Shown here: piece by piece, positions 1 through 13,635 of the stretch
Layout: each line of letters opens with the position of its first letter
Numbering within the stretch: position 1 is the first letter of the stretch
The notes under the pieces: generated by a model
Seen by the model: the letters and a program-made list of their open reading frames with translations, nothing else
Told to the model about the DNA's origin: nothing
Databases searched by the model: none
Made by a program: the position numbers and the translations under genes
Origin: a virus
Length of the DNA stretch: 64,000 nt
Direction: 5' to 3' (one strand)
Virus record (IMG/VR): IMGVR_UViG_3300030099_006646
Location: 1 to 64,000 of that record

Positions 1-262
1 TATATATTTTATAAAGTTCTGGGTCTCTCTCGTTGCTTTCTTCTACGACCTCTTCGACTTCTTCTATGAAGTCCAAGGGGTTTTTCATTTTGTCTTTCTC
101 TATTTTTTCGGCATCTTTGTGAGACATAAAACTTATTTCTTTTGAAAAGTCCTCTTTAAACAATTGTTCGTAAATATCAAATAGCTCTTCTGACTCTTTC
201 AGCAAATGGTTTGAAAGCTTCATTTCCATTTTTATTTTCTTATTTAAGATTTCTTCGCTCAT
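1..262 (-). CDS. Hypothetical acidic protein, 3' end cut by the window edge
   Basis: An open frame runs on the minus strand from an ATG at 260-262 to the window start without a stop, giving 87 codons. The protein begins MSEEILNKKIKMEMKLSN and is highly charged, with an acidic run around residues 68-77 (DFIEEVEEVVEE). It looks helical and has no membrane segment. It is divergent from the ClpP-like gene, with a 74-base gap between them. I do not recognise the family. It is one of only two minus-strand genes in the window. The frame is convincing because it is open throughout and its start sits beside the only sizeable gap at this end. Confidence 0.6.
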   Translation of the reverse strand, partial: MSEEILNKKIKMEMKLSNHLLKESEELFDIYEQLFKEDFSKEISFMSHKDAEKIEKDKMKNPLDFIEEVEEVVEESNERDPELYKIY

Positions 263-275
263 ACTTATTAAGTAT
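261..275. repeat. Perfect 7-bp palindrome at the start of the leftmost minus-strand gene
   Basis: ATACTTA-T-TAAGTAT is an exact inverted repeat with a one-base centre. It overlaps the ATG of the minus-strand gene and lies in the divergent gap before the ClpP-like gene. Its place would suit an operator. A 7-bp AT-rich palindrome can also arise by chance. Confidence 0.3.
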
Positions 276-336
276 TCTTCTGTTTGTTATATATTTAAAG
301 ATAGAGGCACAAACACTTCAAAAGGAAATAAAAAAA

Positions 337-957
337 ATGAAAGATATATTTTGGCTATCAAAAGAACAAGAAAACAACATCTTTGATGATGCCCAGGGCT
401 CTAGCTCTTCTTCTTCCAAGAACAAACTGGAAGTGTTAAATAATAAAATTTACTTTTACTGCAATGTAAATCATAACAACAACCTTCACTTAAACAAAGA
501 ACTTAAGACACTTGAGTCAAAACTTTTAACCTCGCAAGAGTTACTAGAAACAGAGCTTCCTGCACCTATTCACCTACACATCAGTTCTTATGGAGGGTCA
601 GTCTTTGCAGGATTTTCTTCTATCGATTATATCCTTAAGTCTAAGGTGCCTGTAATAACGATTATTGATGGATGCGCTGCTTCTGCTGCCACAATGATGA
701 GTATCTGCGGAGCAACACGACTTATGCACGAACACGCATTTATGCTTATCCATCAGCTTTCTTCTGTATCTTGGGGAAAATATGAAGAACTTAAAGACTC
801 TATGCAAAACAATGACTTGCTTATGGAAACTATCAAGAACCTTTACATTGAAAGAACAAAGATTCCTAAAAAAGAACTTGAAGAAATGCTAAAAAGAGAT
901 TTATGGTGGGACGCTAAGACCTGCTTAAAGTACGGATTAATTGACGATATTATATGA
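337..957 (+). CDS. ClpP-like serine protease
   Basis: A 206-residue ClpP/crotonase-fold protease. All three catalytic positions are visible: Ser116 in GCAASAA, His139 in MLIHQ and Asp188 in KRDLWW, followed by the family ending AKTCLKYGLID. The oxyanion-loop motif SYGGSVFAG is at about residues 84-92. The length fits ClpP (about 200). Residues 1-30 are a low-complexity Ser-rich lead. I chose the ATG at 337 because AAAGGAAA lies just upstream; a longer in-frame start at 211 would run back through the divergent gene. The stop overlaps the next start by 4 bases. Possible roles are processing of phage capsid or tail proteins, or alteration of host proteolysis. No ClpX/ClpA partner is visible. Confidence 0.85.
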   Translation: MKDIFWLSKEQENNIFDDAQGSSSSSSKNKLEVLNNKIYFYCNVNHNNNLHLNKELKTLESKLLTSQELLETELPAPIHLHISSYGGSVFAGFSSIDYILKSKVPVITIIDGCAASAATMMSICGATRLMHEHAFMLIHQLSSVSWGKYEELKDSMQNNDLLMETIKNLYIERTKIPKKELEEMLKRDLWWDAKTCLKYGLIDDII

Positions 958-1676
958 AAACTGTTTACATGTTCGATGTCGATGGAACCTTAACTCCACA
1001 CCGTCAAAGAATAAAACCTTATTTTAAAAAGTTTTTTTTGGAGTGGAGTAAGGATAAGATTTATTATCTTATAACTGGGAGCGATTTAAAAAAAATACAA
1101 TCCCAACTTCCTGAAAAAATTTTACACAACGCTAGAGGTGTGTTTACTTGCATGGGGAATGTTCTTTATATTAAAGAAGAAAAGATATATGAAAACAAGT
1201 TCAAACCTTCAAGCCGTCTACTAAATCATTTAAATAGATTTCTTAATAAAACTGGATACGTGCTAAGAACTGGAAACCACATCGAACATAGACCAGGAAT
1301 GATAAACTTTTCTATTGTTGGAAGAAATGCAACATATACACAGCGTGAAGGATATTATACTTACGACTGTAGAGTAAAAGAAAGAGAAACTATTGCCAAC
1401 TTTATCAATGAAAACTTTAAAGATGAACTGGAAGCATCAATAGGAGGCAAAATAAGCATAGATATATATCCTGCTGGTAGCGATAAAGGACAAGCTTTCC
1501 AGTGGATACATCACAAACAAGGACATGCAGGAGTTAGATATGTATTTTATGGTGATCAAGCAAAGCCAGAAGGAAACGATTGGGGAGTTGTGCAAGAAAT
1601 GAGAAAATTAAACGTAGAGCATTCATATAGATGTGTTAAGGGATATAAAGAGACTCTTTCGTTTCTAAAAAAATAA
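954..1676 (+). CDS. Phosphomannomutase of the eukaryotic HAD type
   Basis: This 240-residue protein matches the cofactor-independent eukaryotic phosphomannomutase family (HAD IIB), which interconverts mannose-6-P and mannose-1-P for GDP-mannose synthesis. Visible signatures are FDVDGTLTPHRQ with nucleophile Asp8 and acid/base Asp10, TGSDLKKIQ (41-49), HRPGMINFSIVGRNA (112-126), IGGKISIDIYP (163-173), Lys178, and a metal-binding GDQAKPEGND ending at Asp209. The length is typical (about 245). It is translationally coupled to the ClpP-like gene (ATGA overlap) and converges on the lipoprotein gene with a 4-base gap. It probably feeds the downstream sugar island, where a mannose-isomerase-like cupin and a GDP-fucose-synthase-like enzyme occur. 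A broader phosphatase role cannot be excluded. Confidence 0.85.
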   Translation: MKTVYMFDVDGTLTPHRQRIKPYFKKFFLEWSKDKIYYLITGSDLKKIQSQLPEKILHNARGVFTCMGNVLYIKEEKIYENKFKPSSRLLNHLNRFLNKTGYVLRTGNHIEHRPGMINFSIVGRNATYTQREGYYTYDCRVKERETIANFINENFKDELEASIGGKISIDIYPAGSDKGQAFQWIHHKQGHAGVRYVFYGDQAKPEGNDWGVVQEMRKLNVEHSYRCVKGYKETLSFLKK

Positions 1677-1680
1677 ACAA

Positions 1681-2496
1681 TTATCTTATTTGTATATCTA
1701 AAAGATGATCCTGATCTGTTTTCTCGATACTGGTCTTCTCTGTGCCATCAACTTCTAGAGAAACTCCATCTGGTACATGATATGGAGTATGTTTGTAAAT
1801 GTAGTTTATAAGCTCCGTATGTGTAGGTCCAAAAGATAAGTGGTGGAACCTTCTATGGACAGAGTGAATCATTCCAACCAATTTTCCTCTTTCGTTAAAT
1901 AAAGGAGAACCAGAAGAGCCTCCAATTACAGGCACTGTGTATAGCGAAAACCCCCACTTGTGCCCAGAGTATCTTCCTTCTAACACAGGAACTGTTTTAA
2001 TATTAAACATCCCTACAGGAGCCGCAACATTGTAAATTAAGTCACCCCAGATAGGAGCATCGTTTCTTTCAATCTTTACAGGTGATTTTTTTAAACTGTC
2101 TGAATATAGAATACATGTATCTAGCTTAGAGTTGAAATTTATTGTTTTTGTATCGTGTTTAACTCCATTAATATCAATAATGTAAGTTGTTTGTTTGACC
2201 TTTGCCTCGCCACCTAGATCATTTAAAATGACACCTGGATCGCAGCTATGCCCAGTCGTTAAGATATAAGACCCATGTTCATAAACCCTAACCACAGATC
2301 CACTTGATGTAGCTCCAAGTTGAAACTTCATGCAAGTTTTATTGACGCATTTTACCACATCATATTTTGCTACTACCTTTACAAAAGAATCCATCGGTAG
2401 CTTATGTTTTAAGTTAAAATGTCCATTTAATGTCCCGCCACAAGATACTAGAAACATTAAAGAAAACAACAATATAAAAGACTGAACAAACTTCAT
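1681..2496 (-). CDS. Secreted trypsin-like serine protease, predicted lipoprotein
   Basis: A 271-residue protein with an N-terminal signal peptide (residues 1-18, hydrophobic) ending in a lipobox LVSC, so Cys19 is the likely lipidated residue. The chymotrypsin-fold triad is readable: His83 in TTGHSC, Asp126 in KLDTCIL and Ser195 in GGSSGSPLF. The motif GKLVGMIHS follows the Ser as in secreted trypsin-like proteases. A charged tail follows about residue 250. AAGGAG (minus strand, 2512-2507) is 10 bases from this ATG; a TTG at 2502 would be only 4 bases away and gives two extra residues. It should be exported and anchored to the host envelope. It is transcribed against its neighbours, which suits a stand-alone accessory gene. 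Confidence 0.8.
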   Translation of the reverse strand: MKFVQSFILLFSLMFLVSCGGTLNGHFNLKHKLPMDSFVKVVAKYDVVKCVNKTCMKFQLGATSSGSVVRVYEHGSYILTTGHSCDPGVILNDLGGEAKVKQTTYIIDINGVKHDTKTINFNSKLDTCILYSDSLKKSPVKIERNDAPIWGDLIYNVAAPVGMFNIKTVPVLEGRYSGHKWGFSLYTVPVIGGSSGSPLFNERGKLVGMIHSVHRRFHHLSFGPTHTELINYIYKHTPYHVPDGVSLEVDGTEKTSIEKTDQDHLLDIQIR

Positions 2497-2506
2497 AGTC
2501 AATTTT

Positions 2507-2512
2507 CTCCTT
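2507..2512 (-). promoter_or_regulatory. Ribosome binding site of the lipoprotein protease gene
   Basis: AAGGAG on the minus strand. The spacing is 10 bases to ATG 2496 and 4 bases to TTG 2502, so the ATG is preferred. Confidence 0.6.
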
Positions 2513-2541
2513 GTAAAAATAACTAGAACTGTTTTTGTTTT

Positions 2542-2548
2542 CTATTTA
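2542..2548 (+). promoter_or_regulatory. CTATTTA element, candidate phage promoter core before phoH
   Basis: CTATTTA followed by TT lies in the 69-base divergent gap between the lipoprotein gene and phoH, 17 bases before the phoH start. The same heptamer occurs in three other intergenic gaps (38251, 47440, 59276). In this divergent gap it could also act leftwards. The promoter role is inferred only. Confidence 0.3.
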
Positions 2549-2565
2549 TTTTACAAGGAATATCC

Positions 2566-3888
2566 ATGAAAAAAACATATGTCTTTGATACGAGCGCTAT
2601 TTTAGCTGACTATAAATGTATCTATGAATATAAGAAAAATGATATTGTTATTCCTTTCAAAGTCTTAGAAGAAATCGACGCTCAAAAGAAACGTCAAGAC
2701 GGCGTAGGTTTTAATGCTAGGATGATTATTCGCGAGCTTGATTTACTCAGAGAAAAAGGAAATATTTATCGAGGAGTGAGAATAGAAAAAGGTAAAGGTC
2801 TGCTTTCTATTAGAGGTTATGATAAAAACCTCCTACCAGATGAATACAAGTTATCTAATGCCGATAATGAAATCATAGGCACCGCAATAACTGAACGGAA
2901 AAGAAACTTTGATAAGAAAGTCATCATGGTGACAAAAGACATCCACATGAGAGTTAAGTGTGACACCCTAGAGCTTCCATGTGAAGATTATGATAAAGAT
3001 AAAATACACGATAACGATGAATCATATTCCGGCATAACTGAACATGAAGTAGATGATTTACTAGTAGATTATATTTACGAAGGACGTGAAATATTTTTAG
3101 ATCAAAAAGAAATAAAAGCACACCCCAATCAGTGCATACTCTTTAAGTCAACTCAAAATCCTAAAAAATCAGCCTTGGCAAGATTTTTAAGTTATGATGA
3201 ACCTGTAAAGAAAGTTGCTCAAAACAAAAGAGGAATATGGGGAGTAAAGCCTAAAAATAAAGAACAGGTATTTGCCTCTAATCTTTTAATGGATGAAAGT
3301 ATTCCTATCGTATCCTTAGTAGGACCAGCAGGTTCGGGCAAAACACTTTTGGCAATTGCGGCTGGTTTAGAACAGACTTTAGGAACAGGTCTTTACAATA
3401 AGCTAGTTATATCTCGCCCAGTCCAGCCAGTAGGTAAAGATATTGGCTACTTACCTGGCAGCGTAGAAGAAAAGATGAATCCCTGGCTCGCGCCGATTAG
3501 AGATAACTTGGAATTTTTAATGTCCTATTCTTATTCGAAAAGAGACAACTATGAGACACTAGATACCTATATTGAATCTGGCGTAATTGAAGTAGAAGCT
3601 TTAACATACATCAGAGGTCGTTCCATAGCTAACGCTTATATTATTATTGATGAATCTCAAAACTTAACAGCGCATGAATTAAAGACTATAATAACTCGTG
3701 TAGGAGAAAATACAAAAATTATCTTAACAGGAGACGTTGAACAGATAGATAATCTCTATGTTGATCAACAATCAAATGGTCTATCCTATGCGATAGAAAA
3801 GTTTAAAGAACACGACTTAGCAGCGCATCTTACTCTTGTAAAAGGTGAAAGAAGCAAGGTTGCTACGTTAGCATCAAAAATATTATAG
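2566..3888 (+). CDS. phoH: PhoH-family ATPase with N-terminal PIN domain
   Basis: A 440-residue PIN-PhoH fusion (YlaK/PhoH2 type). The PIN ribonuclease domain spans about residues 1-150, with acidic residues at Asp8 (FDTSA), Glu35/Glu36 (VLEEIDAQ), Asp100 (ADNEIIG) and Asp125 (TKDIH). The PhoH ATPase domain has Walker A GPAGSGKT at 253-260, Walker B IIIDESQ around Asp362-Glu363, and ILTGDVEQID. Members couple ATP-driven RNA unwinding to RNA cleavage. PhoH genes are common in large phages. AAGGAA stands just before the ATG. The gene leads a plus-strand run that continues through the nuclease gene and probably into the sugar island. Confidence 0.92.
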   Translation: MKKTYVFDTSAILADYKCIYEYKKNDIVIPFKVLEEIDAQKKRQDGVGFNARMIIRELDLLREKGNIYRGVRIEKGKGLLSIRGYDKNLLPDEYKLSNADNEIIGTAITERKRNFDKKVIMVTKDIHMRVKCDTLELPCEDYDKDKIHDNDESYSGITEHEVDDLLVDYIYEGREIFLDQKEIKAHPNQCILFKSTQNPKKSALARFLSYDEPVKKVAQNKRGIWGVKPKNKEQVFASNLLMDESIPIVSLVGPAGSGKTLLAIAAGLEQTLGTGLYNKLVISRPVQPVGKDIGYLPGSVEEKMNPWLAPIRDNLEFLMSYSYSKRDNYETLDTYIESGVIEVEALTYIRGRSIANAYIIIDESQNLTAHELKTIITRVGENTKIILTGDVEQIDNLYVDQQSNGLSYAIEKFKEHDLAAHLTLVKGERSKVATLASKIL

Positions 3889-3897
3889 GAGAAAAAA

Positions 3898-4170
3898 ATG
3901 GAAACTGAGAATCCACTAGAAGAAGTTGTTGAGCCTGACAATGATTTAAAAAACATGCTTGTTGAATATGTGGGAGAAAAAAACGACCCAGAAGACCAAC
4001 TTGTCACAGTAGAGATGATTGTAGGTACTTTGGCTGATGAATTCCCAGAGCTTGTGCTAGCTGTTGCGGAGGAAAATTGGGAACGTGGTTATCACCAAGC
4101 CTTAGATGATGTAGAACTTGGAGAGAAGCTTTTTAAAGAAGAGTTAGAAAAAAGAAAAAATGAAGAATAA
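3898..4170 (+). CDS. Small acidic hypothetical protein
   Basis: A 90-residue, strongly acidic, soluble protein with a charged helical C-terminus (LGEKLFKEELEKRKNEE). It has an AGGAGA ribosome site 6-9 bases upstream. It follows phoH by 9 bases and overlaps the metallopeptidase start by 11 bases, so it belongs to the same operon. The middle contains MIVGTLADEFPELVLAVAEE, which reads as a helix rich in small hydrophobic residues. I do not recognise the family. Its position suggests an early regulatory or accessory function, but nothing in the sequence specifies one. Confidence 0.65.
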   Translation: METENPLEEVVEPDNDLKNMLVEYVGEKNDPEDQLVTVEMIVGTLADEFPELVLAVAEENWERGYHQALDDVELGEKLFKEELEKRKNEE

Positions 4171-4840
4171 GATAAAAGATATTATCATTAGTTCATACAA
4201 CAAAGCCCTTAGAGAGAGAAAAGAATTTTATTTAAATGGTGCATTGATACAAATAATCAATCCATTGAATAAATCTATAGATCTTGAGCGAATAGTACAT
4301 TTTCTACAAAGCAAAATACCAGATCAAATACTAAACTTAATCGATGTTTACTACATTGGTGATTTTGATGTATTTAAAAAAAGAAATACAAATGCCGCTT
4401 ATATGGATGGAGCAATATATCTAAGTAACAATCAGGATGGTGAAAGAGATCTTTTAGATGATATTATTCACGAACTAGGTCACGCTTTAATAGAAAAAGA
4501 TCATATTAATATTTTTGGAGATGGGTTAGTTAAGCAAGAATTTTTATCTAAAAAACAAACACTAAAAAGGATTTTAAGATCGAAAGGTTATGATATACCA
4601 AAATCATTCAATACGGTGGGCTTTTCACAAGATGTGGACGACTTTTTGTACAAAGAAGTAGGATATAAAACATTAGCAAATCTAATAAATGGCTTGTTTG
4701 TTAGCCCTTATGCTACAACATCCTTGGAAGAATATTTTTCTACAGGGCTAGAAGATTATTATCTTGGTAAATCCTTGTTATTAAAAAGTATTTCTCCTCA
4801 ACTATATAATAAAATGGAGCTTTATGATGAACTGGACTGA
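4160..4840 (+). CDS. Putative zinc metallopeptidase (HExxH)
   Basis: A 226-residue protein with the zinc-binding motif HELGH at residues 104-108, preceded by DLLDDII as usual in zincins. A plausible third ligand lies in TSLEEYFSTGLEDYY (Glu190 or Glu191), the arrangement seen in gluzincins such as the anthrax-lethal-factor-like peptidase domain. The N-terminal 100 residues form an alpha/beta lead. There is no signal peptide, so it should act in the cytoplasm or virion. It overlaps both neighbours (11 bases upstream, 17 bases downstream), implying coupled translation. The substrate is unknown. It is the third unrelated protease in the first 5 kb. The family assignment rests on the motif only. 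Confidence 0.65.
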   Translation: MKNKIKDIIISSYNKALRERKEFYLNGALIQIINPLNKSIDLERIVHFLQSKIPDQILNLIDVYYIGDFDVFKKRNTNAAYMDGAIYLSNNQDGERDLLDDIIHELGHALIEKDHINIFGDGLVKQEFLSKKQTLKRILRSKGYDIPKSFNTVGFSQDVDDFLYKEVGYKTLANLINGLFVSPYATTSLEEYFSTGLEDYYLGKSLLLKSISPQLYNKMELYDELD

Positions 4841-5950: not shown

Positions 5951-7210
5951 TTGACTGAAAAAATGAAGATTATAACTATTTCCGATAGCCCGATGGCTCC
6001 ATCAGGTGTTGGAACACAAACAAACTATATGATACAAAGTTTATTAAAGACTGGTAAATATCAATTTATTTCTATAGCTGGAGCCATTAAACATACGAAT
6101 TACAATCCTATCAAAACAGAAGAGTGGGGAGACGACTGGGTTGTCCTTCCAGTAGATGGTTATGGAACTCAAGAGCAAATTAGATCTATGGTCCGAAATG
6201 AAAAACCAGATGCTCTTTGGTTCATGACTGATCCCCGATTTTTCGGGTGGTTGTGGGAAATAGAAGATGAAATAAGACCTCTTTGTCCTATGATTTATTA
6301 TCATGTGTGGGACAATTACCCATACCCAAGATACAATGAGCCTCTTTATTCTTCTACTGATGTGATTGCTACAATTTCAAAAGTGACAGACAATGTAGTT
6401 AGAAACGTCGCTCCTGAAGTAGAGTGTATTCACATTCCTCATGCAGTGCCTGATGAAATTTTTATGCCCTTGGAAGAAGATGTTATTAATGCCTTGCGAA
6501 AAGATAATCTTGGTGATGAGAAAGATAAATTTATTGTTTTTTGGAACAATCGCAATGCTAGAAGAAAACAATCTGGTACTTTGATTTATTGGTGGAAGAA
6601 GTTCTTGGACAAAGTTGGATATGATAAAGCGAAACTTATCATGCATACAGATGTTCATGATCCATATGGTCAGAATCTACAATCTATTATTGAATCTTTA
6701 GGCTTGACCAATGGCGAAGTTGTATTTTCACAAAACAAAATTGGATTGCAAGACATGGCATCTTTTTATAATATGGCAGATTTGACTGTCAACATTGCCG
6801 ACGCCGAAGGATTTGGACTTGGAACACTTGAATCTCTTTCATGTGGAACGCCCATTATTGTTACAATGACAGGAGGTCTTCAAGAACAAGTTACAGATGG
6901 AGAGAACTGGTTTGGCGTTGGGATTGAACCTTCTTCTAAAGCTGTTATTGGTTCTCAAGAAATACCATATATCTATGAAGATAGAATCAATGAGGATGAT
7001 TTTGTAAACGCACTTGAGAAAATTTATAATATGACTCCAACAGAACGTAAAGAGCTAGGTGCAAAAGGCAGACAACACGTATTAAATAACTACAGCTTTG
7101 AACTTTACGGTCAACGTTGGGATGATCTTTTTCAGAAGGTCCAAAAGGACTATGGTTCCTGGGATACAAGAAAAAACTATAAAAACTGGCACTTGAAGGA
7201 GGTCAAATAA
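5951..7210 (+). CDS. Glycosyltransferase, GT4-like (GT-B fold)
   Basis: A 419-residue GT-B glycosyltransferase. The C-terminal nucleotide-sugar domain has the EX7E signature Glu286-Glu294 (AEGFGLGTLES) followed by CGTPIIVTMTGG, typical of family GT4. The N-terminal half opens with a Gly-rich acceptor loop (SDSPMAPSGVGTQTNYM). It probably transfers a hexose or deoxy-sugar onto a growing glycan in the cytoplasm. The start is TTG, chosen on Shine-Dalgarno spacing. It opens the sugar island and its stop overlaps the next start by one base. The next gene is another GT-B enzyme, so the pair may have duplicated. Donor and acceptor are unknown. Confidence 0.85.
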   Translation: MTEKMKIITISDSPMAPSGVGTQTNYMIQSLLKTGKYQFISIAGAIKHTNYNPIKTEEWGDDWVVLPVDGYGTQEQIRSMVRNEKPDALWFMTDPRFFGWLWEIEDEIRPLCPMIYYHVWDNYPYPRYNEPLYSSTDVIATISKVTDNVVRNVAPEVECIHIPHAVPDEIFMPLEEDVINALRKDNLGDEKDKFIVFWNNRNARRKQSGTLIYWWKKFLDKVGYDKAKLIMHTDVHDPYGQNLQSIIESLGLTNGEVVFSQNKIGLQDMASFYNMADLTVNIADAEGFGLGTLESLSCGTPIIVTMTGGLQEQVTDGENWFGVGIEPSSKAVIGSQEIPYIYEDRINEDDFVNALEKIYNMTPTERKELGAKGRQHVLNNYSFELYGQRWDDLFQKVQKDYGSWDTRKNYKNWHLKEVK

Positions 7211-8457
7211 TGAGAAAGAAGATTATTGTTACAGGTCCAGCTTTGTCTCAATCAGGCTACGGCGAACATACTAGATTTTTACTTAGAGCTTTAAAGAGCA
7301 GAGAGGATGTTTTTGATATCTACCTTCACAATGTAAATTGGGGTAAAACAAACTGGCTTTTTCATGACGATGACGAACGTCGATGGTTTGATTTTATTCT
7401 TCAAAAGACTGTTTTTCATACTCAAAAAGGTGGCAAATTTGATATTTCTGCTCAAGTAACAATTCCGAATGAATGGAAACCTCTAGCTCCAATCAATATC
7501 GGAGTTACTGCTGGTATTGAGACGACAAAGGTATCCCCTCAATGGATTGAAAAGTCATGGTTAGTAAATAAAATTATTACTATATCTGAACACTCAAAGC
7601 AGGTGTATGAAAGCACTTCATATCAAGCGTCGAACAATCAAACAGGAGAACAATTTATTGCTTCTTGCAAAGCACCTATCGACATTGTGCATTATCCCGT
7701 CAAGCAACCTGAATTACTTGATTTAGATATTGATTTTGAATATGATTTCAATTTTTTGACTGTAGCACAATGGGGTCCAAGAAAAAATCTTGACAATACT
7801 GTTAAATGGTTTTTGGATGAGTTTAAGAATAAAGAAGTTGGATTGATTATTAAGACAAGCGTCGCAAAGAATTGTCTTCTTGACAGAAGAATGACATTTA
7901 ATAATCTTAGGCGATTAATCGATAATGATGAAAATAGAAAATGCAAAGTCTATCTTTTACATGGATATATGTCAGATCAAGAAATCAACTCACTTTACAA
8001 TCATTCAAAAGTGAAGTGTCTTTTAAGTGCCACTCATGGCGAAGGCTTTGGTCTTCCTATCTTTGAAGCTGCTTATAATGGCTTGCCAATCATTGCGCCA
8101 TCTTGGTCTGGGCATGTGGATTTTCTTTATATGCCGAAGAAAGACAAGAACGGCAAGATTAAAAACAAGGCAATGTTCTCAAAAGTAGATTATAACTTGT
8201 CTCCTATTCCAGAACCAGTAGTTTGGGATGGGGTTCTTCAAGCAGACTCTATGTGGTGTGAACCTAAAGAAGCTTCCTTTAAACTTAAGATGAAAGACAT
8301 GGTTGATAACTGGAAGAGGCATAGCAAAAGAGCAAAAGATCTTCAAGCTTATGTTTTGGAAAACTTTAATGAAGAAAAACAGTACAAGGCGTTCACAGAT
8401 AGTATTCTATCTCTAATCGAATCACCCCAAGAAGATGAGCTTGTTGAGTTTGATTAA
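7210..8457 (+). CDS. Glycosyltransferase, GT4-like (GT-B fold)
   Basis: A 415-residue GT-B glycosyltransferase whose N-terminus (GPALSQSGYGEHTRFLLRAL) parallels the preceding enzyme. The EX7E motif is Glu278-Glu286 (GEGFGLPIFEAAYNGLPII), followed by APSWSGHVDFL. There is a strong GGAGG ribosome site, and TAATG coupling to the upstream gene. The region at about residues 310-350 (PKKDKNGKIKNKAMFSK) is an extra charged loop. It likely adds the next sugar in the same glycan. The sugar specificity cannot be read. Confidence 0.85.
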   Translation: MRKKIIVTGPALSQSGYGEHTRFLLRALKSREDVFDIYLHNVNWGKTNWLFHDDDERRWFDFILQKTVFHTQKGGKFDISAQVTIPNEWKPLAPINIGVTAGIETTKVSPQWIEKSWLVNKIITISEHSKQVYESTSYQASNNQTGEQFIASCKAPIDIVHYPVKQPELLDLDIDFEYDFNFLTVAQWGPRKNLDNTVKWFLDEFKNKEVGLIIKTSVAKNCLLDRRMTFNNLRRLIDNDENRKCKVYLLHGYMSDQEINSLYNHSKVKCLLSATHGEGFGLPIFEAAYNGLPIIAPSWSGHVDFLYMPKKDKNGKIKNKAMFSKVDYNLSPIPEPVVWDGVLQADSMWCEPKEASFKLKMKDMVDNWKRHSKRAKDLQAYVLENFNEEKQYKAFTDSILSLIESPQEDELVEFD

Positions 8458-8465
8458 GGAGACTT

Positions 8466-10076
8466 ATGAATATAGTTTACATCTCTGACTTTTTTGTGGA
8501 ACAAGTAGCCGGTGGAGGAGAACTCGTTGACGATTGTCTAATGAAGCATCTTTCTTCACGCGGCTTTTCCATTTTAAAGGTCAATTCACAAAATACAACA
8601 CAAGATTTTTTAGAAAAAAATAAAGATTCGTTCTTTATTGTCTCTAACTTCGTTGGATTAAGTCAACAAAGCAAAGATTTTCTTCAAAATTGCCGCTACA
8701 TTATCTACGAACACGATCACAAGTACATAATAGAGCGAAATCCTTCGCATTATCCAGACTTTGTTGTGCCTCCAAGCCGATTATGCAACCTTTCTTTCTA
8801 CAGAAATGCTCAAGCAGTGGTTTGTCAGTCAAAACTACACGCAGAAGTCTTACGAAAGAACATAAAATCTAACAATATTGTCTCTGCTGGTTGTACTTTA
8901 TGGTCAAAAGAGCATCTAGAGGTCTTAAGAAAGCATCTTAATACTCCAAAAACCGACAAAGCCGCTGTCTTAGACTCAACTAACCAAGTAAAAGGCACAT
9001 TCCAGGCTATTGAGCATTGCAAACGCAAGAATATTGACTATGAACTTATTAAATCACCTGATTATGACGAGTTTATTGGTCAACTTGCTTCAAAAAACTC
9101 ATTAGTTTTCTTTTCACAGGTATTAGAGAGTTTTTGTAGGCTCGTCGTAGAAGCCCGTATTCTCGATTGTAAGCTCATTACGAACAAAATGAATGGTTGT
9201 ACCTCGGAAGATTGGTTTAAAGCCTCTAAGGGGGCAAAACTCCTTGAATACGTGGAAAATAAACAAGAAGAAGTGGTTGATCTGTTCGTTTCACTTGTAA
9301 AAGGTGAGAAAAACACCGAAGTTATGCAAGAAACTGCTGATATTACAGTGATTTTGAACTCTTACAGGCGTCCATATAACCTAAAAATGCAAATAGAGGC
9401 TCTAAAAGCCCAAACAATCAAGCCAAAAGAGATTTGGTTGTGGGTAAATGCCCATGAAGACAATAAAGATTACGATTATTCCGACTTAGGGCTTGATAAA
9501 ATCTTTAATAACGACTTTAACTGGAAATTCTACGGTAGATTTGCCGGAGCACTGCTTTCAGACACCAAATACGTCGCTATTTTTGATGATGATACCATTC
9601 CAGGCACAAAATGGTTCGAAAACTGCTTAAATACGATGAAAACACACGAAGGTATCCTTGGTTCGGCTGGAATCTTGCTAAATGACAAAATTTATGTAAA
9701 ACACGACCGTTGTGGTTGGCCAACAAGGAATGAAGAGGCTATAGAGGTAGATTTAGTGGGTCATGCGTGGTTTTTTAAGCGAGATTGGCTACAATACCTC
9801 TGGAAAGAGAAGCCACCGACCTGGGATAACGCAGAAGACATACAATTTGCCTATTCTGCCCAAAAATACGGTAATATTAAGACATATTGCCCTCCACACC
9901 CTAAAAATGACATGGAAATGCACGGATCTATCATGGGAAATGAACTTGGCATCGATAATAAGGCAACTTCGACCAATTCTGCCGTTTCGCACCAACAATT
10001 CTTCTCTGAAAGGGACTTTTGTGTGCAATATGCCCTAAAAAATGGGTGGAAAACAGTACGAGGAGTCACGTTATGA
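8466..10076 (+). CDS. Two-domain glycosyltransferase: GT-B-like N-terminus plus GT2-like (GT-A) C-terminus
   Basis: A 536-residue fusion. Residues 1-290 resemble a shortened GT-B enzyme: YISDFFVEQVAGGGELVDD opening, and a late segment SQVLESFCRLVVEARILDCKL that recalls the GT4 donor site. From about residue 293 a GT-A domain begins (ITVILNSYRRPYNLKMQIEAL) with the metal-binding run Asp374-Asp375-Asp376 (IFDDDTIPG) and a later W..AEDIQF acceptor segment. The enzyme could add two sugars in series. A strong AAGGAG site precedes the ATG. The stop overlaps the epimerase start (ATGA). The N-terminal half lacks a clear EX7E motif and may be non-catalytic. Confidence 0.75.
   Translation: MNIVYISDFFVEQVAGGGELVDDCLMKHLSSRGFSILKVNSQNTTQDFLEKNKDSFFIVSNFVGLSQQSKDFLQNCRYIIYEHDHKYIIERNPSHYPDFVVPPSRLCNLSFYRNAQAVVCQSKLHAEVLRKNIKSNNIVSAGCTLWSKEHLEVLRKHLNTPKTDKAAVLDSTNQVKGTFQAIEHCKRKNIDYELIKSPDYDEFIGQLASKNSLVFFSQVLESFCRLVVEARILDCKLITNKMNGCTSEDWFKASKGAKLLEYVENKQEEVVDLFVSLVKGEKNTEVMQETADITVILNSYRRPYNLKMQIEALKAQTIKPKEIWLWVNAHEDNKDYDYSDLGLDKIFNNDFNWKFYGRFAGALLSDTKYVAIFDDDTIPGTKWFENCLNTMKTHEGILGSAGILLNDKIYVKHDRCGWPTRNEEAIEVDLVGHAWFFKRDWLQYLWKEKPPTWDNAEDIQFAYSAQKYGNIKTYCPPHPKNDMEMHGSIMGNELGIDNKATSTNSAVSHQQFFSERDFCVQYALKNGWKTVRGVTL
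10061..10065 (+). promoter_or_regulatory. Ribosome binding site fixing the epimerase start
   Basis: AGGAG lies 7 bases before ATG 10073 and rules against the longer start at 10019. Confidence 0.55.
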
Positions 10077-11080
10077 TGCTAATTTGCTTTGGAACACGCC
10101 CTGAATACATCAAAATTAAGCCTATTTTGGAGGTTTTTAAGGGTAAAATACCCCATAAAATCCTGTTTACAGGGCAACATACAGACCTTTTAGAGCATAT
10201 AAAAGACAATGTTCACCGCTTATATATTAAAGATGGACCTAATAGATTAGATTCTATTGTCACTTCTACCTTGAATAACGAGGATATTTTTAAAAATGTA
10301 ACGTCTGTTATGGTACAAGGAGACACTACATCGGCTTTTGCTATTGCTTTGGCTGCTTTTCATCGTAAAATACCCGTATTACACCTTGAGGCAGGGCTTA
10401 GAACGTATAATTTAGACCATCCTTACCCTGAAGAGTTCAATAGACAGGCAATTGGGCGCATAGCGACCTATAATCTATGTCCTACATCTAAATGTATGGC
10501 AAACTTAGAGAAAGAACACACTCCAGGTAAAAGATTTATTGTAGGCAACACAGTTTTAGATAATCTTGTTGATTTAGAGCCTTCTTTTAGTAATAACGTG
10601 ATTATAACGCTTCATAGGAGAGAAAATCATCACTGGATTGATGAATGGTTTAAAAAAATAGATAAATTGGCTGAGAAACACAAAGATTTAAACTTTATAT
10701 TACCAATTCATCCAAATCCAGCCGTTTTAAAGCACAAACACTTATTAGAACACGTAAAAGTCATTGATCCAGTGCCATACGATGAATTTATTAAGATGCT
10801 GGCGGGATGTAAGTTCGCTATAACAGATAGCGGAGGATTGCAAGAGGAACTTTCCTTTTTTGGCAAGCTTTGTATCGTATGTCGTAAGAAAACAGAGAGA
10901 ACAGAAGGTGTAGGAACCTTTGCCTACCTTTGCATGGAACCAAACAACTTAGAAGAGCTGTTTAATAGAATAAACAGCAACTATAACTCTGTTAAAGGCA
11001 TACCTTCTCCATATGGCAACGGAAAATCAGCCGAAAAGATACTAAAACTCATAAAGGATGGTTATGTCACAGGGATTTAA
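10073..11080 (+). CDS. wecB: UDP-N-acetylglucosamine 2-epimerase
   Basis: A 335-residue non-hydrolysing UDP-GlcNAc 2-epimerase that supplies UDP-ManNAc. Family blocks are all present: GTRPEYIKIKP, TGQHTDLL, QGDTTSAF, HLEAGLRT then HPYPEEFNRQAIG, GNTVLDNL, LHRRENH, IHPNP, DSGGLQEE and ERTEGVGT. It is about 30-40 residues shorter than the usual 370, with trimming spread between motifs rather than a broken end. The ATG at 10073 is supported by AGGAG at 10061-10065; a longer frame from 10019 would overlap the previous gene by 58 bases. No ManNAc dehydrogenase is visible here, so UDP-ManNAc is either used directly or oxidised by the host. Confidence 0.9.
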   Translation: MMLICFGTRPEYIKIKPILEVFKGKIPHKILFTGQHTDLLEHIKDNVHRLYIKDGPNRLDSIVTSTLNNEDIFKNVTSVMVQGDTTSAFAIALAAFHRKIPVLHLEAGLRTYNLDHPYPEEFNRQAIGRIATYNLCPTSKCMANLEKEHTPGKRFIVGNTVLDNLVDLEPSFSNNVIITLHRRENHHWIDEWFKKIDKLAEKHKDLNFILPIHPNPAVLKHKHLLEHVKVIDPVPYDEFIKMLAGCKFAITDSGGLQEELSFFGKLCIVCRKKTERTEGVGTFAYLCMEPNNLEELFNRINSNYNSVKGIPSPYGNGKSAEKILKLIKDGYVTGI

Positions 11081-11846
11081 AGAAGATTTCTTCAATCTTC
11101 TCAATAAGTTAAAGAATAATGAGCATTTTGCCTTTACTCGTTTTTCAGACGGTGAAGTATTCGTCATGGAGAACAAACATTTGATTTTACAGGAGAAATT
11201 CTGTAAAGTAGGCGATTTAATCCATAACTTTGGTTATTCAGAGGATGATCACAAAGAATTTGACCCTGAAAAGCATCAGTTCGTCCGTGAAAAGCTTATG
11301 GACGCCTTTAACTTTAAGAAAGAGAACTATTTCGTTGGAGCAGGGTGTAATAACTGCACTTGCGAGATTAGAAACCAAATTCCTTGGCTAAAAGAGATGC
11401 GACCAGGCGATGAAGAACACTGGACTTCTCCAAACCTGCTCGTTAACTCAAACTATCCTCTTTTTATCACACAGTTTGTCCCAGAGTTTAAAAATCACAA
11501 GATTGTTATGATCTGTAGCGAGAAAGCCAAGTTTGATAAAGCTCCTTTTGATGTTGTAAAAGACTTTAGGGTTGGAAAGAACTGTATTGTCAACGATCAT
11601 CATCTTGAAGAAGAAATCAAGACCTGGATGAACGAGAACAATGTTGAGAACCATTTATTTTTATTCTCTGCGTCAAGTTTAAGTGAAATACTCATTCATA
11701 AATTATTCGAACACAATGATAAGAATACCTACATGGATATTGGGACTTGTCTGCATCCATATCTTGGATTAACAGTGGAAAGAGATTATCTTAGAGCATA
11801 TTGGAACAACAAGTTTCACCCTGACCTTTTTAAGGAATGCGGTTGA
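11064..11846 (+). CDS. Putative GT-D-type glycosyltransferase (DUF1792-like)
   Basis: A 260-residue protein carrying FTRFSDGE near residues 25-31, close to the F-x-R-[FW]-G-D-G-E block of DUF1792/GT-D glycosyltransferases, where the Asp-x-Glu pair binds metal. A later segment TYMDIGTCLHPYLG fits the second conserved block with its Asp. A cysteine cluster (GAGCNNCTCE, around residue 96) is unusual. ATG 11064 was chosen because AAAGG ends 6 bases before it; an earlier ATG at 11058 touches that site. It overlaps the epimerase by 17 bases. The fold family is moderately supported; the sugar is unknown. Confidence 0.55.
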   Translation: MSQGFKEDFFNLLNKLKNNEHFAFTRFSDGEVFVMENKHLILQEKFCKVGDLIHNFGYSEDDHKEFDPEKHQFVREKLMDAFNFKKENYFVGAGCNNCTCEIRNQIPWLKEMRPGDEEHWTSPNLLVNSNYPLFITQFVPEFKNHKIVMICSEKAKFDKAPFDVVKDFRVGKNCIVNDHHLEEEIKTWMNENNVENHLFLFSASSLSEILIHKLFEHNDKNTYMDIGTCLHPYLGLTVERDYLRAYWNNKFHPDLFKECG

Positions 11847-12229
11847 TGGATTTTGTAAGCAATAAAAAAGAATATTGGAAGTTTATCTTAGATTTAAGAA
11901 ATCATCCGAGTGTTAAAGTTGGCTTTATTCAACAAGAACATATTTCAGAGGAAAGTCATATAGAATACATGAAAGAACACAGTGATAAATATTTTGTATG
12001 CTTGATTGACGGTGAACCCGCTGGGTATGTAGGAGTTATTAACAAAGATATTCGTGTAGCAACTCATCCAAAATATCAAGGACGCGGAGTAGGTAAATTT
12101 ATGATTGACGAGATAATGAAAATATATCCTAGCTCTTGTGCAAAAATAAAGATGGAAAACGAAGCAAGCATAAAACTTTTTGAAAAATGTGGCTTTAAAA
12201 AGAAATATTACATCCTGGAGAAGCAATGA
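11846..12229 (+). CDS. GNAT-family N-acetyltransferase
   Basis: A 127-residue GNAT acetyltransferase. The acetyl-CoA loop is seen in HPKYQGRGVGKFMIDEI (Q-x-x-G-x-G), preceded by a beta strand VATHP. The ending ENEASIKLFEKCGFKKK is the usual motif B. The small size and the context suggest N-acetylation of an amino sugar, as PseH and similar enzymes do in glycan loci. The ATG shares its A with the previous stop, and AAGGA lies 9 bases before it; an ATG at 11837 touches that site. It is followed by an ATGA overlap with the next glycosyltransferase. Confidence 0.8.
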   Translation: MDFVSNKKEYWKFILDLRNHPSVKVGFIQQEHISEESHIEYMKEHSDKYFVCLIDGEPAGYVGVINKDIRVATHPKYQGRGVGKFMIDEIMKIYPSSCAKIKMENEASIKLFEKCGFKKKYYILEKQ

Positions 12230-13635
12230 TTTCAAACAATAAAAAACTTAAAGACTTAGAAAATATTGATGTAATATTCTTTAGCGCTTTTGACCACAAT
12301 GAGGGAAAAAATAATCATGGATTATTTCAAATGTTCGACTTCTTTAGAAGCAACTTGAAGATAAAGTCTGTGTTTGTCAACACGCTAGAAAGTCTATACA
12401 GGAATGATATCGATATTTTTAATATTAGCCATTTAGGAGAAAATTTACCATTAGCTCAACAGATAAACTACGATTTTATGGATTCAAGCTCAAGTAATCC
12501 GTACCTTTGGCTAAACCAGTGTGATAAAACAGAAGAAGGAAGAAAAGAATATACAGAACACGCAGCCCGTATTTTAATAAAAAACTTGCCGAATCACAAA
12601 TTTATAGCCATCGCTGATAAAGCAGATATTGACTTGCCAGTACTAGAACTGATCTTAAGACACTTTAAATCAAAGGTCATTATTTTATCTGCTGTTAATA
12701 ATACATGGACCGGATATTGTGCATACCCGGATGAATACAATTGTGACAAGTTTAAAACTAAAGAGGGTTGCCGATTACCATGCCCTGCAATTTCTAGAAG
12801 AAAAGGTGGCGATGCAAGTTTTTTGTCTTCGAACTATAATGCCACAAAGGATTTTGTAGAAAGAAACAAGGAATCAGTTGTTTTGAATGTTGGTAACAAG
12901 TTTTCTTTCCAAGAAGCAAGTGAGAGTTTTATATTCAAGGATATCGAAAAAGTTTTAATACCATTAAAAAATGTTTTTTCTCACGATGATTTTGAAAAAT
13001 TATGGCTTGCTAAGAAAGATCAAAGGGAGAACTTACTTAATAATCTTAAGCAACAATCTTCTTTTAACGTGCAAAAAACAAAGTTTATTATCATGTGGTC
13101 AGCGCATGACATAGCTATAAAAAGAAAAGGTATGGATTATTTTATAACTTCTTTAAGAATACTGAAATATCTGATGAAGGTGGATAGGTTTGATGAGATG
13201 TTAGTCGTTATATCTGCACAAATTGGTGATCACGTCCTTGCTAATGAATTAAAAAAACTTAACATACCAGTAGTTTTTACTGGACATATAGATAAAAATA
13301 CTTATAATTCTATCTTAGCTGCAAGTGATGTGTATTGTTCGACTACTCTTAGCGATGCAGGACCTAGAACAACATACGAAGCTGCCGCCCTGGCTACTCC
13401 TGTAATTTCTTTTGATAAATGCAATGCTGCTGATTTTGTAAGTAATGAAAACGGAGCTTTAGTTGAAACTTATGACGTGAAAAGCTTTGCAGAGCAAATG
13501 TACAGATTCGCTAACCACAACAAAGAAGAAAAAAAGTTAACTTCACTCAATATGTATAAGACTTACGAGAACCTGATGGATACTAATAAACTTGTAGAAA
13601 AGTGGGAGGATTTCTTTAAAAAACATGGAGTATGA
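12226..13635 (+). CDS. Glycosyltransferase, GT4-like, with cysteine cluster
   Basis: A 469-residue GT-B enzyme. The C-terminal domain has DAGPRTTYEAAALATPVISF, in which Glu385 is the second Glu of EX7E and Asp377 takes the first position. The middle (about residues 163-186) holds a cysteine-rich stretch (YCAYPDEYNC ... GCRLPCP) like that of WcaC-type colanic-acid transferases, where HPxxxxGxC...C...CP motifs occur. MWSAHDIAIKRKGMDYF opens the donor domain. It likely extends the island's glycan. It overlaps the dioxygenase start by 11 bases. The AT-rich codon use is similar to the next several genes. Confidence 0.78.
   Translation: MISNNKKLKDLENIDVIFFSAFDHNEGKNNHGLFQMFDFFRSNLKIKSVFVNTLESLYRNDIDIFNISHLGENLPLAQQINYDFMDSSSSNPYLWLNQCDKTEEGRKEYTEHAARILIKNLPNHKFIAIADKADIDLPVLELILRHFKSKVIILSAVNNTWTGYCAYPDEYNCDKFKTKEGCRLPCPAISRRKGGDASFLSSNYNATKDFVERNKESVVLNVGNKFSFQEASESFIFKDIEKVLIPLKNVFSHDDFEKLWLAKKDQRENLLNNLKQQSSFNVQKTKFIIMWSAHDIAIKRKGMDYFITSLRILKYLMKVDRFDEMLVVISAQIGDHVLANELKKLNIPVVFTGHIDKNTYNSILAASDVYCSTTLSDAGPRTTYEAAALATPVISFDKCNAADFVSNENGALVETYDVKSFAEQMYRFANHNKEEKKLTSLNMYKTYENLMDTNKLVEKWEDFFKKHGV

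What the first reader, a model, noticed from the sequence alone, without database searches (positions are those of the whole stretch)
1681..2496. Phage-encoded lipoprotein with a complete trypsin-like catalytic triad
A lipobox signal peptide followed by an intact His83/Asp126/Ser195 set predicts a protease anchored in the host envelope during infection. It is on the opposite strand from its neighbours and behaves as a stand-alone accessory gene. It could cleave receptors or incoming phage proteins (superinfection exclusion) or condition the envelope for lysis.
Basis: partly seen in the sequence, partly recalled or inferred. Interest (0 to 1): 0.6.

Follow-up and report, generated by a model that had tools for sequence, protein, structure and literature searches.

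The report
Virus-only membrane-anchored protease of phages
A family of uncultivated bacterial viruses carries, almost always at the same spot in the genome, a gene for a protein-cutting enzyme that looks built to be exported and fixed by a fat anchor to the infected cell's envelope; no cellular relative was found, and it probably cuts host envelope proteins, perhaps to prepare the cell for bursting.

Summary
The minus-strand gene at 1681-2496 encodes a 271-aa lipobox protein with a Trypsin_2 domain (E 2.5e-11) and the named His83/Asp126/Ser195. It is not chance. At least 169 loci in viral contigs encode relatives. In 72 distinct aligned members the triad is invariant (72/72), the lipid Cys is kept in 71, and two Cys pairs predict disulfides and so an extracytoplasmic site. 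The model matches HtrA/DegS protease domains but has no PDZ domain.

'Stand-alone accessory gene' is wrong. The gene sits divergent to PhoH in 71/78 loci. Sampling by PhoH instead finds it in 56/63. It is close to a core gene of a T4-like, PhoH-marked phage lineage. No relative was found in 84,980 prokaryote genomes or 50,697 phage records.

A CTAGTTA element, a variant of the phage's late-promoter-like CTATTTAT motif, lies 11-46 nt upstream in 46/71 (expected about 1). In the window's phage and a close relative the same element precedes an exported lytic-transglycosylase-like gene and a thioredoxin-like lipoprotein. Three relocated copies lie beside a peptidoglycan hydrolase gene. I favour a late envelope-conditioning protease over superinfection exclusion. 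Substrate, timing and activity are untested.

The parts
1681..2496 (-). Gene for the lipid-anchored trypsin-like protease, 271 aa (stop codon included)
2443..2496 (-). Signal peptide, residues 1-18
   Evidence: sequence; lipobox scan of the family
2440..2442 (-). Lipobox Cys19, predicted lipidation site (LVSC|GG)
   Evidence: 71/72 homologues
1870..2292 (-). Trypsin_2 domain, residues 69-209
   Evidence: Pfam PF13365 E 2.5e-11; Foldseek to HtrA1/DegS
2248..2250 (-). His83, catalytic
   Evidence: 72/72
2119..2121 (-). Asp126, catalytic
   Evidence: 72/72
1912..1914 (-). Ser195, catalytic, in GGSSGSP
   Evidence: 72/72
2332..2349 (-). Cys50 and Cys55, predicted disulfide; lost together in three members
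2242..2244 (-). Cys85, two residues after the catalytic His; invariant, possible partner of Cys128
   Evidence: 72/72; pairing inferred
2113..2115 (-). Cys128, two residues after the catalytic Asp; invariant, possible partner of Cys85
   Evidence: 72/72; pairing inferred
2507..2512 (-). Ribosome-binding site AAGGAG
   Evidence: sequence
2519..2526 (-). CTAGTTAT element, conserved upstream of the protease gene across the family
2542..2549 (+). CTATTTAT late-promoter-like motif of the divergent PhoH gene
2566..3888 (+). PIN-PhoH ATPase gene, conserved divergent neighbour
954..1676 (+). HAD/phosphomannomutase-like gene, convergent neighbour in close relatives
211..957 (+). ClpP-like protease gene, frequent neighbour

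Best explanation
The gene makes a phage-specific lipoprotein whose mature part is a single active trypsin-fold (HtrA-type) serine protease domain. Inferred steps: it is exported by Sec, lipidated at Cys19 and, with no Asp at +2, probably sorted to the outer membrane facing the periplasm; its disulfides form there. It is made in the later part of infection from its own divergent promoter and cleaves host envelope proteins. The most likely purpose is to dismantle or condition the envelope together with exported peptidoglycan hydrolases before lysis. Shown by sequence: lipobox, triad, cysteines, purifying selection, fixed gene position, conserved upstream element, predicted fold. Inferred: activity, location, timing, substrate, role in lysis. 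I put about 0.85 on 'active, exported, lipid-anchored protease acting on envelope proteins' and about 0.45 on the late envelope-conditioning role; the confidence below is for the whole statement.
For: Trypsin_2 above the curated cutoff. Triad 72/72 and lipid Cys 71/72 across members with median pairwise identity 35%. C50 and C55 vary together and C85/C128 are invariant, so an oxidising compartment. AF2 mean pLDDT 80; Foldseek top hits are HtrA1 and DegS-deltaPDZ protease domains, probability 1.00, TM by target about 0.7. Late side: CTATTTAT stands upstream of the tail sheath and of a gene just ahead of the capsid gene, and near the prohead protease, with CTATTTA before the tail tube; the variant CTAGTTA lies 11-46 nt before the protease in 46/71 members, against 45 sites in 1.286 Mb elsewhere in the same loci, about 185-fold. 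In G000 and G008 the same element precedes an exported SLT-like gene (its orthologue in G016 is a weak SLT match, E 2.5e-4) and a thioredoxin/glutaredoxin-like lipoprotein. In two relocated copies (L025, L026) the neighbouring divergent block is a small membrane protein plus an Amidase_2 endolysin-type gene; in L065 an M15 peptidoglycan peptidase, with an SLT gene nearby.
Against: No expression, localisation or activity data. The motif is only inferred to be a late promoter, and CTAGTTA is not the exact late form. The shared element with the SLT-like and thioredoxin-like genes was seen in G000 and G008 only, not in G009, G016 or G011. In the usual PhoH location no lysis gene is adjacent, and other relocated copies (L059, L092, L094, L184) have no hydrolase next to them. 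The host is unknown, so the sorting rule is assumed.
Confidence: 0.45

Rival explanations
1. Superinfection exclusion by proteolysis: the lipoprotein cuts the phage receptor, or an incoming phage protein in the periplasm, so that infected cells and debris no longer take up phage.
For: Phage lipoproteins acting at the outer membrane from the periplasmic side are known: T5 Llp blocks FhuA (PMC9586334). Lipid anchor and periplasmic face fit. A late-made version could still protect progeny from sticking to debris.
Against: The upstream element looks late rather than early, while exclusion proteins are commonly early (PMC9586334). Near-universal retention (56/63) and strong conservation over hosts that probably differ is unusual for a receptor-specific function.
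Confidence: 0.25
2. Envelope quality control: a phage-supplied DegP/HtrA-like protease removes misfolded envelope proteins so that a heavily infected cell survives long enough.
For: Closest folds are HtrA-type. The phage also carries GroEL, a GroES-like protein, Hsp20 and FKBP genes, so it invests in protein folding.
Against: No PDZ domain and no NCBIfam HtrA model near its cutoff (20 bits against 416 for degP_htrA_DO, in a relative). Most bacteria have their own HtrA (established knowledge).
Confidence: 0.2
3. Virion-associated or processing enzyme: the protease is packaged or matures a phage protein.
For: In two contigs of another phage type the gene follows a very large protein that may be a virion component (L092, L094).
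Against: Conserved signal peptide and lipobox export it away from capsid assembly; the phage has its own T4-type prohead protease and ClpP-like protease.
Confidence: 0.05

Closest known systems
HtrA/DegP/DegS serine proteases (MEROPS S1C), protease domain
   Same: Trypsin fold, His-Asp-Ser triad, extracytoplasmic site, envelope anchoring as in DegS; best PDB fold hits; no Asp at the 189-equivalent (Pro189), so not trypsin-like Arg/Lys specificity (inferred).
   Different: No PDZ domain, lipid anchor instead of a transmembrane helix, two predicted disulfides, about 16-19% identity, family signature GMIHS, virus-only in the searches made.
V8/glutamyl endopeptidase and exfoliative-toxin type S1B proteases
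   Same: GGxSGSP active-site motif and weak sequence similarity.
   Different: The specificity His of V8 falls one position off (I210 aligns with it, by hand alignment); lipoprotein; no significant sequence match.
Phage superinfection-exclusion lipoproteins (T5 Llp)
   Same: Phage-encoded, lipid-anchored, expected at the outer membrane from inside (PMC9586334).
   Different: Llp is a small blocking protein without a protease domain and is made early.
Outer-membrane spanin lipoproteins
   Same: Phage lipoprotein of the envelope, possibly late and lysis-linked.
   Different: Spanins are small and non-enzymatic (own knowledge); this is a protease domain of about 250 residues.
Trypsin-like peptidases annotated in other phages (e.g. 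uncultured Caudovirales, Rhizobium phage AF3; PHROG 9683)
   Same: Fold and Trypsin_2-type domain.
   Different: Only weak profile matches (E 1e-4 to 5e-8); no tblastn match in INPHARED.

Membership tests
Trypsin-like serine peptidase (Pfam Trypsin_2, clan PA, S1) | Curated profile score above cutoff | tested here: met
   44.9 bits against 27.6
Trypsin-like serine peptidase (Pfam Trypsin_2, clan PA, S1) | Conserved His-Asp-Ser triad | tested here: met
   72/72
Trypsin-like serine peptidase (Pfam Trypsin_2, clan PA, S1) | Two-barrel chymotrypsin fold | tested here: met
   AF2 pLDDT 80 and Foldseek to HtrA/DegS domains; triad geometry itself not measured
Trypsin-like serine peptidase (Pfam Trypsin_2, clan PA, S1) | Proteolytic activity | not testable with these tools
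   needs an assay
HtrA family (DegP/DegQ/DegS) | C-terminal PDZ domain | tested here: not met
   no PDZ hit; about 60 residues after the Trypsin_2 domain, the last 20-30 disordered in the model
HtrA family (DegP/DegQ/DegS) | Score above NCBIfam HtrA models | tested here: not met
   no hit for the window protein; at best 20 bits against 416 for a relative
HtrA family (DegP/DegQ/DegS) | Trimeric assembly | not tested
   no complex was modelled
Bacterial-type lipoprotein | Signal peptide with lipobox and invariant Cys | tested here: met
   78 of 80 loci, 2 partial (and reading of its exceptions); Cys 71/72
Bacterial-type lipoprotein | Lipidation and membrane location | not testable with these tools
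   globomycin or palmitate labelling needed
Superinfection-exclusion lipoprotein | Blocks adsorption or DNA entry | not testable with these tools
   needs a host
Superinfection-exclusion lipoprotein | Early expression | tested here: inconclusive
   upstream element resembles the late class but no transcript data
Phage lysis protein | Located in or co-regulated with a lysis cassette | tested here: inconclusive
   beside a peptidoglycan hydrolase in L025, L026, L065 only; shared element in G000 and G008 only

The most novel reading that the evidence does not exclude
A dedicated phage lysis or egress enzyme of a new kind: a virus-only, lipid-anchored protease that, with an exported transglycosylase and a thiol-disulfide lipoprotein under a shared late element, breaks down the protein part of the host envelope in a whole lineage of uncultivated T4-like phages.
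Probability: 0.2. Interest if true: 0.75.

Novelty: new variant of a known kind. Interest (0 to 1): 0.52.

Why it matters
Phages are known to attack peptidoglycan and to block receptors with lipoproteins; a conserved, lipid-anchored protease in the host envelope is, as far as the searches here went, undescribed. Because it is nearly universal in a large lineage and has no cellular relative found, it points to a regular step of infection that has been missed, and it is small enough to be tested directly.

Tried and rejected
Chance match or decayed gene: rejected by conservation and dN/dS. Recently acquired accessory gene: rejected by synteny and the reverse PhoH sampling. Host-derived HtrA: no relative in genome contigs in two scans, though those scans need near-exact conserved peptides and would miss distant relatives. 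PADLOC: only weak hits to protease domains of defence proteins, E down to 2e-7 for relatives, read as shared fold. Cultured relatives with the protease: none in INPHARED; the nearest phages by terminase are Flavobacterium phage immuto (44%) and Microcystis phage Mel-JY01 (44%); the first 50 kb of each shows no protease of this kind in the annotation. Literature: eight searches found no paper on a phage lipoprotein protease. Host: could not be identified; TTGAAA-N17-TATAAT-like sites upstream of early-type genes suggest ordinary sigma-70 promoters rather than Bacteroidota ones (inference). First AF2 model with 7 sequences was poor (pLDDT 68) and was replaced.

Full report
What is there. The gene on the minus strand at 1681-2496 encodes 271 residues, starting at ATG 2496 behind AAGGAG. 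It begins with a signal peptide ending in LVSC19 and carries a Trypsin_2 domain at residues 69-209 (E 2.5e-11, 44.9 bits, cutoff 27.6). The window is the first 64 kb of a virus record of 158,608 bp, G000, with a T4-type portal, major head protein, tail sheath, tail tube and prohead protease. The nearest terminases in named phages are only 44% identical.

Is it real and functional? Three scans of viral contigs gave 7, 15 and then 169 relatives, of which 80 were kept. In 72 distinct aligned members, pairwise identity down to 26% and median 35%, H83, D126, S195, C85, C128, N156 and the GSSGS core are invariant; C19 is kept in 71, C50 in 68 and C55 in 69. In three members C50 and C55 are lost together, as expected of a disulfide; C85 and C128 sit two residues after the catalytic His and Asp and may clamp them together, which is an inference. 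The lipobox is present in 78 of 80 loci, counting two read by eye, and the other two are partial. The residue after the lipid Cys is A, G, V, S, T or R, never Asp, which under the E. coli rule means outer-membrane sorting. dN/dS between close relatives is about 0.05-0.09.

Fold. AlphaFold2 on the 14-sequence alignment gave pLDDT 80 and pTM 0.75. Foldseek against PDB puts HtrA1 and DegS-deltaPDZ protease domains first with probability 1.00, and the profile search reaches Deg8 at E 1.5e-7. There is no PDZ domain. Residue 189 is Pro, not Asp, so Arg/Lys specificity is unlikely, and position 194 is Ser, so trypsin-like zymogen activation is unlikely; both are inferences from alignment.

Not a stand-alone accessory gene. 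PhoH lies directly upstream and divergent in 71 of 78 loci. To avoid sampling on the protease itself I searched with an alignment of PhoH: 56 of 63 loci with enough flank carry the protease next door. The PhoH query was itself built from protease-bearing loci, so it favours their lineage. Of the seven without it, one carries a relative elsewhere in its record and one carries a very distant lipobox protein with a Trypsin_2 domain (E 4.4e-16) instead. The gene is therefore close to a core gene of the lineage. No relative was found in 84,980 prokaryote species genomes or 50,697 phage records.

Regulation. In G000 the motif aCTATTTAT occurs mostly on the coding strand, between genes, 11-60 nt upstream of starts that include the tail sheath and a gene just ahead of the capsid gene, with the shorter CTATTTA before the tail tube. 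I read it as the late promoter. TTGAA-N-TATAAT sites precede GroEL, PurA and others. Upstream of the protease, CTAGTTA occurs within 100 nt in 46 of 71 members where shuffles predict 1.06, at 11-46 nt from the start, and only 45 times in 1.286 Mb elsewhere in the same loci; CTATTTA takes its place in several others. Members are related, so these counts are not independent, but median identity of 35% makes simple shared descent of the short spacer unlikely. In G000 and its relative G008 the other CTAGTTAT sites that stand between genes right before a start are those of an exported SLT-like gene (115920) and a thioredoxin/glutaredoxin-like lipoprotein (141153). This sharing is not seen in G009, G016 or G011, so it is weak support, although in G016 these last two genes are neighbours.

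Context of moved copies. L025 and L026 have the protease next to a small membrane protein and an Amidase_2 gene; L065 next to an M15 peptidase with an SLT gene in the same stretch. Other moved copies (L059, L092, L094, L184) do not show this.

Mechanism. The evidence supports an active, exported, lipid-anchored protease. The late-type element and the moved copies tilt me to envelope conditioning before lysis; superinfection exclusion and quality control remain open. Exclusion proteins are generally early (PMC9586334).

Novelty. Trypsin-like proteases and lipoproteins are both known in phages; the combination as a conserved, virus-only core gene is new as far as I could search. I rate it a new variant of a known kind.

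Noticed in passing
G000 141153-141596 (outside the window); L186, L187, L190: A second phage lipoprotein, thioredoxin/glutaredoxin-like with CxxC, found in 5 of 16 related records besides G000; it could serve disulfide formation in the envelope.
   Followed up: partly
G000 115920-116510; L187 1939-2532: Exported protein with an SLT-like ESGYNP motif, adjacent to the thioredoxin-like lipoprotein in G016.
   Followed up: partly
whole record G000, e.g. 59276, 83864, 90603: Likely phage-specific late promoter motif aCTATTTAT, 32 CTATTTA on + against 6 on -.
   Followed up: partly
window 4160-4840: Small zincin-like protein (HELGH) conserved in the same block next to PhoH in most related loci.
   Followed up: no
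window 3898-4170: 90-aa protein of no known family, conserved between PhoH and the zincin-like gene in most loci.
   Followed up: no
G000 134874-136445, 115602-115865, 137981-138397, 109161-109592: Phage-encoded GroEL, GroES-like, Hsp20 and FKBP genes in one genome.
   Followed up: no
G000 119842, 126937, 130229, 141656: Host-like metabolic genes: a PALP-family (cysteine synthase-like) gene and, by reading the sequence only, PEP carboxykinase-, IMP dehydrogenase- and adenylosuccinate synthase-like genes.
   Followed up: no
window 5951-13635: Several glycosyltransferase genes downstream of the protease block, conserved with it.
   Followed up: no
G000 138495-139130: PAP2-superfamily membrane phosphatase, a possible envelope lipid enzyme.
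   Followed up: no
L185 1189-1923: Very distant lipobox protein with a Trypsin_2 domain in a phage that lacks the usual gene beside PhoH; possible replacement.
   Followed up: partly
L092, L094: Members of the protease family behind a 1350-aa protein in an apparently different phage type.
   Followed up: no
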